DNA of 64,000 bases from Kofleriaceae bacterium (GTDB taxonomy: Bacteria; Myxococcota_A; Polyangia; Haliangiales; Haliangiaceae), in contig JAGPCY010000025.1 in NCBI GenBank assembly GCA_018057825.1, positions 1-64,000 on the forward strand, given 5' to 3'. Shown piece by piece: positions 266 to 42,276 of this stretch; position 1 is the first letter of the stretch; each line of letters starts with the position of its first letter. The notes under the pieces were generated by a model. It ran no database searches, was not told the origin of the DNA, and saw only the letters and a program-made list of their open reading frames with translations. The translations under genes were made by a program, and so were the position numbers.

Positions 266-1348
266 ATGACCGCCGAGGCCAAGGCCGCGCTCCGCCTGAC
301 CGCCTACGCTCGCGGCGGTGGTTGAGCGGCCAAGCTTCGGCTGCCGGACCTCGTGCAGGTCCTCGATGAAGATCCGCCGTGCGGCGATGGTGGCGCCAGC
401 GCCATCGTGGTCGATCACGCCCACAAGGACGACGCCGCGGTCGTGGCCGGGCCGCGCCCAGGCTACGGCCTGGTCCTCACCGCCGACGTCATCGCGCCCC
501 TGGTCGACGAGCCCGAGGCCTTCGGCGCGATCGCCGCGTGCAACGCGCTGTCCGACGTGTACGCGATGGGCGGCGAGCCGCGCTTCGCGCTCAACCTGGC
601 GTTCTTTCCCGATGACAAGCTGCCGCTCGACGTGCTGGTCGCGATCCAGCGCGGCGCCGCGGCGATGTGCCGGCGCGCCGGGGCCGCGGTGGTCGGCGGT
701 CACACCGTGCGCGATCCCGAGCTCAAGTTCGGGCTGTCGGTCACGGGCGAGGTCGCCCTCGACGCGGTGTGGGCCAACACCGCGGCGCTGCCGGGCCAGA
801 TCTTGATCCTCACCAAGCCCCTGGGCACCGGCGTGATCGGGCAGGCCATCAAGACCGAGGCCGCCAGCCGGGCCGAGATCGACGCCGCGGTCGCCGCCAT
901 GACCACGCTCAACCGCGACGCCGCCGCGGTCGGCCGCGCGGTCGGGGTCACCGCCGCCACCGACGTCACCGGCTTCGGCCTCCTCGGTCACCTGCGCAAC
1001 ATCGTCCGCGGCTCGGGGCTGTCGGCGACCCTCGAGGTCGGCGCGCTGCCGGTCTTGCCCGGCGTCTGGGATCACCTCGCCGCCGGCCGGGTCCCAGGCG
1101 GCACCAAGATCAACCGCGGCTTCCTCGAGCCGATCGTCACCTGGCGCGGCCCCGAGGCCGACCGCGAGCGCGTGCTCACCCTGGCGTGCGACGCCCAGAC
1201 CAGCGGGGGCCTGCTCTTGTGCGTGCCGCCGGCGCAGGTCGACGCCGCGGTCGCCGGTCTCACCGCGCGCGGCGTGACCGCGGCGGTGATCGGCGCCTTG
1301 ACCGAGCGCGACAGCGACGGCGGCGAGCGGCCGATCATCCTGCGCTAG
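266..1348 (+). CDS. selD: selenide, water dikinase SelD, selenocysteine-containing
   Basis: Makes selenophosphate from selenide and ATP, the selenium donor for Sec-tRNA synthesis. The ATG at 266 opens a 360-residue product only if the in-frame TGA at 323-325 is read as selenocysteine. This gives residues LTAYARGGGUAAKL, matching the SelD N-terminus in which Cys or Sec is followed three residues later by an essential Lys (here U20 and K23). Downstream lie the ALSDVYAMGG segment (about residue 97), the GGHT motif and DVTGFGLLGH (about 233), all typical of SelD; the length is close to the family norm (~347). A conventional caller would start at GTG 353 and lose the catalytic end. No clear Shine-Dalgarno was seen. 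The stop overlaps that of the convergent DJ-1 gene in a shared CTAG. The Sec reading rests on motif alignment plus a hairpin after the UGA. Confidence 0.93.
323..362 (+). promoter_or_regulatory. UGA(Sec) codon and bacterial SECIS-like hairpin of selD
   Basis: TGA at 323-325 is followed by a perfect 6-bp stem, GGACCT (346-351) with AGGTCC (357-362), closing a five-base loop CGTGC (352-356). The loop begins 26 bases after the UGA and has G as its second base. Both agree with the published bacterial SECIS pattern (loop 16-37 nt from UGA, a G in the first two loop bases). The hairpin is seen in the sequence; binding by SelB is inferred. Confidence 0.75.
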
Positions 1349-41928: not shown

Positions 41929-42276
41929 TCACCCCAGGGCGGCGCGCAGGCCGTCGGGCGTGAACCCGACGATCAGCGTGTCGCCGATGCGGAGCGCTGG
42001 GGCCCGCAGCCGACCGGTGGGCCCCAGCACCAGGGCCCGGAGCTCGTCGTCGCTCGGCCCGCTGGCCAGCTCGACGGTCACGGTCTTCTTGCCCTTGGCG
42101 ACGACCAGGCGCTTGGCCCGGCGCACCAGCGCCAGGGCGGCCTCGGCCTCGATGGGTTGCTTGTCGGCGCGGACGGTCTCGGTGATGGCGAGCTGGTTGG
42201 TCGCAAGAAACTCCTGCGATCGGGTGCAGCTCGTTCAACCGTTGCGGTGGAAGTACCAATCGATCGGGCGCGGCAT
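41929..42276 (-). CDS. ArsC/thioredoxin-fold selenoprotein with UxxC redox motif
   Basis: 115 residues from ATG 42276 if the in-frame TGA at 42237-42235 is selenocysteine: the N-terminus reads IDWYFHRNGUTSCTRSQEFL, so residues 14-17 are U-T-S-C. A UxxC motif at the end of the first beta strand, then a helix, is the thioredoxin/ArsC arrangement, and other myxobacterial ArsC-family proteins have C-x-x-C here. The C-terminal half (VAKGKKTVTVELA, LRAPALRIGDTLIVGF) contains the expected cis-Pro segment (APAL). A conventional caller would keep only the last 65 codons (GTG 42126) and lose the active site. Redox role likely; substrate unknown. Divergent from the signal-peptidase-like gene. Confidence 0.88.
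42202..42237 (-). promoter_or_regulatory. UGA(Sec) codon and SECIS-like hairpin of the UxxC gene
   Basis: Reading the minus strand: TGA 42237-42235, 16 bases, then a 7-bp stem CGCAGGA (42218-42212) with TCTTGCG (42208-42202), including one G-U pair, and a loop GTT. The loop begins 23 bases after the UGA and starts with G, as in bacterial SECIS elements. The structure is seen by eye; no energy was computed. Confidence 0.7.

What the first reader, a model, noticed from the sequence alone, without database searches (positions are those of the whole stretch)
41929..42276. Hidden UxxC selenoprotein of the ArsC/thioredoxin fold
The minus-strand gene would be called only as a 65-codon fragment. Extending it through TGA 42235-42237 gives a full thioredoxin-fold N-terminus with U14-T-S-C17 and an N-terminal strand IDWYFHRNG. 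Sec at the first position of a CxxC-type site is a strong family signature, and selD lies in the same window.
Basis: partly seen in the sequence, partly recalled or inferred. Interest (0 to 1): 0.85.

Follow-up and report, generated by a model that had tools for sequence, protein, structure and literature searches.

The report
Selenocysteine redox protein, known family

Summary
Read through UGA 42235-42237 on the minus strand, the gene gives a 115-residue protein with U14-T-S-C17. It scores 122.6 bits (cut-off 85) against NCBIfam NF041106, "ArsC family (seleno)protein". Across the phylum, 77 of 379 genomes hold a member over the cut-off. In 76 of them the same column is an in-frame UGA; in one it is Cys. 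Eleven more homologues with Cys at that column lie mostly in Planctomycetota. A hairpin sits 22 nt after the UGA and meets the published bacterial SECIS rules. Its arms covary, Cys homologues lack it, and the genome has selA, selB, selD and tRNA-Sec. AlphaFold (pLDDT 92) gives an ArsC/Spx-type thioredoxin fold. So it is a selenoprotein (inferred; no protein evidence), but not a new kind: a 2026 review already lists this model with its UxxC motif. It is not a proven arsenate reductase: no ArsC or Spx model reaches its cut-off. Most likely it works as a glutaredoxin-like selenol/thiol oxidoreductase, with Sec14 attacking and Cys17 resolving. Substrate and reductant are unknown, and no conserved gene neighbourhood points to one.

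The parts
41929..42276 (-). Coding sequence of a 115-aa ArsC-family (NF041106) selenoprotein, ATG to TGA stop
   Evidence: Translation with TGA=U; NF041106 122.6 bits, cut-off 85, residues 5-108; homologues co-linear over full length
42235..42237 (-). In-frame UGA read as selenocysteine, residue 14
   Evidence: Same column is UGA in 76 genomes over the cut-off and Cys in G388 and 11 other homologues
42226..42228 (-). Cys17 codon, second residue of the UxxC motif (presumed resolving Cys)
   Evidence: Invariant in alignments A1 and A4
42201..42219 (-). Bacterial SECIS hairpin, 7-8 bp stem with loop A-G-U-U-U, loop 22 nt after the UGA
   Evidence: MFE -9.6 kcal/mol for the 23-nt stretch; 4 of 7 pairs show double compensatory change; absent in Cys homologues
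41929..41931 (-). Terminal UGA, read as true stop
   Evidence: Homologues end at this point with UAA, UAG or UGA
293..1237 (+). selD (selenophosphate synthetase), itself with an in-frame TGA at 323-325 (GGGUAAK)
   Evidence: TIGR00476 305 bits, cut-off 125, one TGA inside; translation

Best explanation
The gene encodes a selenoprotein of the known family NF041106. During translation SelB with tRNA-Sec, bound at the hairpin just after the UGA, inserts selenocysteine at position 14 instead of stopping (supported by comparative evidence, not seen directly). The protein folds like ArsC/Spx/glutaredoxin, with U14-T-S-C17 at the start of the first helix and Pro93 of the LRAP motif probably cis and next to it (inferred from the fold family). 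Most likely it is a small selenol/thiol oxidoreductase: Sec14 attacks a disulfide or other oxidised substrate, Cys17 resolves the intermediate through a Se-S bond, and a thioredoxin- or glutathione-type system regenerates it (inferred). Confidence that it is a selenoprotein is about 0.95; that it is a dithiol-type oxidoreductase about 0.7; the substrate is unknown.
For: NF041106 match at 122.6 bits against a cut-off of 85. UGA conserved at this column in 76 genomes over the cut-off; natural Cys replacement in G388 and in 11 loci, mostly Planctomycetota. Genome has selA 524 bits, selB 276 bits, tRNA-Sec 75.4 bits, selD 305 bits, all over cut-off. 75 of 76 genomes with the Sec form have a selA match, against 174 of 302 others (Fisher p 1e-14). 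Hairpin: family mean z -2.14 against synonymous-codon shuffles, about 0 at five control positions; covariation in three registers with the loop G kept; Sec members -7.3 to -15.6 kcal/mol, Cys homologues -0.1 to -6.3, no overlap. It meets the bSECIS constraints in PMC13188914. AlphaFold pLDDT 92.4; best PDB matches ArsC-related and Spx, Z 8-9.
Against: No protein or expression data. The window's own hairpin is not significant on its own against codon shuffles (z -1.19, p 0.14). One Sec-form genome, G223 (85% complete), shows no selA match. Five of six other genomes of the window's genus with a search result have no family member over the cut-off, and none has one. No conserved neighbour suggests a substrate or reductant. 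SECIS covariation is measured in coding sequence, and the sequences are related.
Confidence: 0.7

Rival explanations
1. It is a true arsenate reductase in which Sec14 attacks arsenate.
For: Family name and ArsC-like fold; V. cholerae arsenate reductase 3f0i at Z 8.1; the review notes that a group of other selenoproteins is linked to metal or arsenic resistance.
Against: The arsC model TIGR00014 gives no match up to E 1 for this protein. The motif is LRAP where ArsC-type proteins have xRP, so the Arg next to the Pro is Ala in this family (that this Arg is catalytic in ArsC is from own knowledge). No recurring neighbour gene set; ars genes were not searched for one by one.
Confidence: 0.12
2. 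It is a redox-sensing regulator like Spx that binds RNA polymerase, with the U-C pair as the switch.
For: Best Foldseek hits are Spx structures, and the Spx family has the same CxxC position.
Against: Scores far under the Spx/MgsR cut-off (17.8 against 75 bits); low identity to Spx (16-21%).
Confidence: 0.08
3. Sec14 and Cys17 bind a soft metal or metalloid, so the protein is a metal carrier or sequestering protein.
For: Proposed in the review for the UXX-star and SaoB/SaoC selenoproteins.
Against: The motif, helix position and Pro are those of dithiol oxidoreductases; no gene set recurs nearby.
Confidence: 0.06
4. Not a selenoprotein: the UGA is a real stop, and the reading frame beyond it is a remnant.
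For: UGA is normally a stop; the window's own hairpin alone is not significant.
Against: Conservation on both sides of the UGA in 76 genomes, Cys homologues, SECIS covariation and the complete machinery.
Confidence: 0.02

Closest known systems
NCBIfam NF041106 (ArsC_rel_Se_1), 'ArsC family (seleno)protein'
   Same: Full-length match over the curated cut-off; UxxC at the same place; listed in PMC13188914 as 'Arsenate reductase-like protein', UxxC, 1 Sec
   Different: Nothing of substance; 34-56% identical to the other members compared
GOS 'Arsenate reductase 2' (cd03032, UxxC), PMC2398784
   Same: ArsC-type domain with UxxC motif
   Different: Assigned there to cd03032, the Spx-type domain (own knowledge of the domain name); whether it is the same subfamily as NF041106 was not tested here
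Spx (6gho, 3ihq, 1z3e)
   Same: Fold (Z 8-9) and CxxC position
   Different: 16-21% identity; below the Spx model cut-off; Cys not Sec
ArsC arsenate reductase (glutaredoxin type, TIGR00014; 3f0i)
   Same: Overall fold
   Different: No match to the arsC model; LRAP in place of xRP; second Cys in the motif
Glutaredoxin / NrdH
   Same: Motif at start of helix 1 and a late Pro followed by a GF turn
   Different: Extra ArsC-type helices; scores below family cut-offs

Membership tests
NF041106 ArsC family (seleno)protein | Score over curated cut-off (85 bits) | tested here: met
   122.6 bits, profile 1-105 of 107
NF041106 ArsC family (seleno)protein | Sec or Cys at the first position of UxxC/CxxC | tested here: met
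   U14/C17; column invariant as Sec or Cys
Bacterial selenoprotein | bSECIS hairpin: loop 3-9 nt, stem 4-16 bp, G in first two loop positions, 16-37 nt from UGA, MFE <= -7.5 kcal/mol | tested here: met
   Loop A-G-U-U-U, 7-8 bp, 22 nt, -9.6 kcal/mol
Bacterial selenoprotein | selA, selB, selD, tRNA-Sec in the genome | tested here: met
Bacterial selenoprotein | Selenium in the protein | not testable with these tools
   No proteomics available
Arsenate reductase ArsC (TIGR00014) | Score over curated cut-off | tested here: not met
   Not among matches up to E 1
Arsenate reductase ArsC (TIGR00014) | Arsenate reduction | not testable with these tools
   Needs assay
Spx/MgsR (TIGR01617) | Score over curated cut-off (75 bits) | tested here: not met
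   17.8 bits
Thioredoxin-like superfamily, ArsC/Spx type | Fold | tested here: met
   AlphaFold pLDDT 92.4, pTM 0.84; 3gkx Z 9.2, rmsd 2.6 over 88; 3ihq Z 9.1, rmsd 2.8 over 88

The most novel reading that the evidence does not exclude
The family is a selenol-based redox sensor that acts on transcription or on one partner protein like Spx, so that a Sec-Cys bond, not a disulfide, is the switch.
Probability: 0.06. Interest if true: 0.6.

Novelty: new member of a known kind. Interest (0 to 1): 0.22.

Why it matters
It is a clean case of a gene that ordinary gene calling truncates, and it adds Sec/Cys pairs, a covarying bSECIS and a confident fold to a family whose function appears untested. It does not change what is known about selenoproteins.

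Tried and rejected
Conserved operon: none found; neighbour genes recur only in small sets of loci. Plasmids: no match. Rfam scan of the window at gathering scores: only tmRNA, no SECIS family. Pfam: only a sub-threshold glutaredoxin match. A single alignment for the SECIS of the whole family was not used, because three stem registers exist (3' arm shifted by one base each); pairs were counted by register instead. The first multi-locus script read some loci on the wrong strand and was replaced. The genome-contig scan back-translates Cys, so it can find only Cys forms; its lack of Sec forms means nothing.

Full report
Observation. The minus strand at 41929-42276 reads MPRPIDWYFHRNG-U-TSC... to ALG when TGA 42235-42237 is translated. 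Without read-through only a 65-aa GTG ORF appears.

Family. The translated protein matches NCBIfam NF041106, 'ArsC family (seleno)protein', at 122.6 bits against a cut-off of 85. It has no Pfam match over threshold. In 379 genomes of the phylum, 77 hold a member over the cut-off; 76 have one in-frame TGA at the match and one (G388) has none. Extraction of the loci shows UGA at the U14 column and Cys in G388. A genome scan limited by design to Cys forms found 11 more, mostly Planctomycetota, with Cys at that exact column.

SECIS. The hairpin starts 15 nt after the UGA, with its loop 22 nt after it. In the window it has an A-G-U-U-U loop and -9.6 kcal/mol, which fits the published bSECIS constraints (PMC13188914). 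In 76 distinct Sec sequences the mean z against synonymous-codon shuffles is -2.14, against about 0 at five control positions in the same genes; the window alone is not significant (z -1.19, p 0.14). The stem comes in three registers with G27 always in the loop. In the window's register, 4 of 7 pairs show changes on both sides, 100% of cells pair, and no shuffle of 500 reaches the covariation score. Sec members span -7.3 to -15.6 kcal/mol and Cys homologues -0.1 to -6.3, without overlap.

Machinery. The genome has selA, selB, tRNA-Sec and selD, each over its cut-off. In the phylum sample, 75 of 76 genomes with the Sec form have a selA match, against 174 of 302 others. SelD in this window is itself interrupted by a TGA at the GGGUAAK active site.

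Fold and mechanism. AlphaFold on the window protein with 11 homologues gives pLDDT 92.4 and pTM 0.84, with strands and helices of the ArsC/Spx type. The closest solved structures are an ArsC-related protein (3gkx, Z 9.2), Spx (3ihq, Z 9.1) and arsenate reductase (3f0i, Z 8.1). Sequence profiles agree. Sec14 at the start of the first helix with Cys17 one turn on is the layout of dithiol oxidoreductases (established knowledge); hence the proposed selenol attack and Se-S resolution. That step, the reductant and the substrate are inferred. The protein misses the ArsC model entirely and the Spx model by a wide margin, so it is filed under neither. No conserved neighbours help.

Phylogeny. On a tree of 95 rows, the window protein sits among Sec forms with long branches; the Planctomycetota and other Cys forms group together and G388 lies apart inside the Sec forms. 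Support is modest and the root arbitrary, so the direction of Sec/Cys change is not settled.

Known status. A 2026 review of prokaryotic selenoproteins lists NF041106 as 'Arsenate reductase-like protein', UxxC (PMC13188914); a UxxC ArsC-type protein was in the 2022 list (PMC9312934) and the 2008 ocean survey (PMC2398784). The finding is correct but belongs to a known kind; function remains open.

Noticed in passing
window 293-1237 (+): selD itself carries an in-frame TGA (323-325) at the GGGUAAK active site, so it too would be mis-called by standard gene finding.
   Followed up: partly
L145, L146, L147, L148 (genomes G013, G015, G002, G004): A second small UTSC protein, closer to Spx, with in-frame UGA and a hairpin after it, in the window's genus and family. 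The member scanned (L148) is under every NCBIfam cut-off (best TIGR01617, 48.9 against 75 bits), so it may be an uncatalogued subfamily.
   Followed up: partly
L138-L141: A clade with YGRAUTGC or GRIUTGC at the motif and a strong hairpin after the UGA. L138 scores 69.4 bits against NF041106, under the 85-bit cut-off. The search tool's match began after the UGA, so it reported no stop.
   Followed up: partly
L058 (genome G388): Cys form (CETC) in a genome that still has selA: a natural Sec/Cys exchange inside the phylum.
   Followed up: partly
L143 (genome G328): A divergent UTSC member (79.2 bits, just under the cut-off) whose hairpin after the UGA does not fit the family pattern.
   Followed up: no
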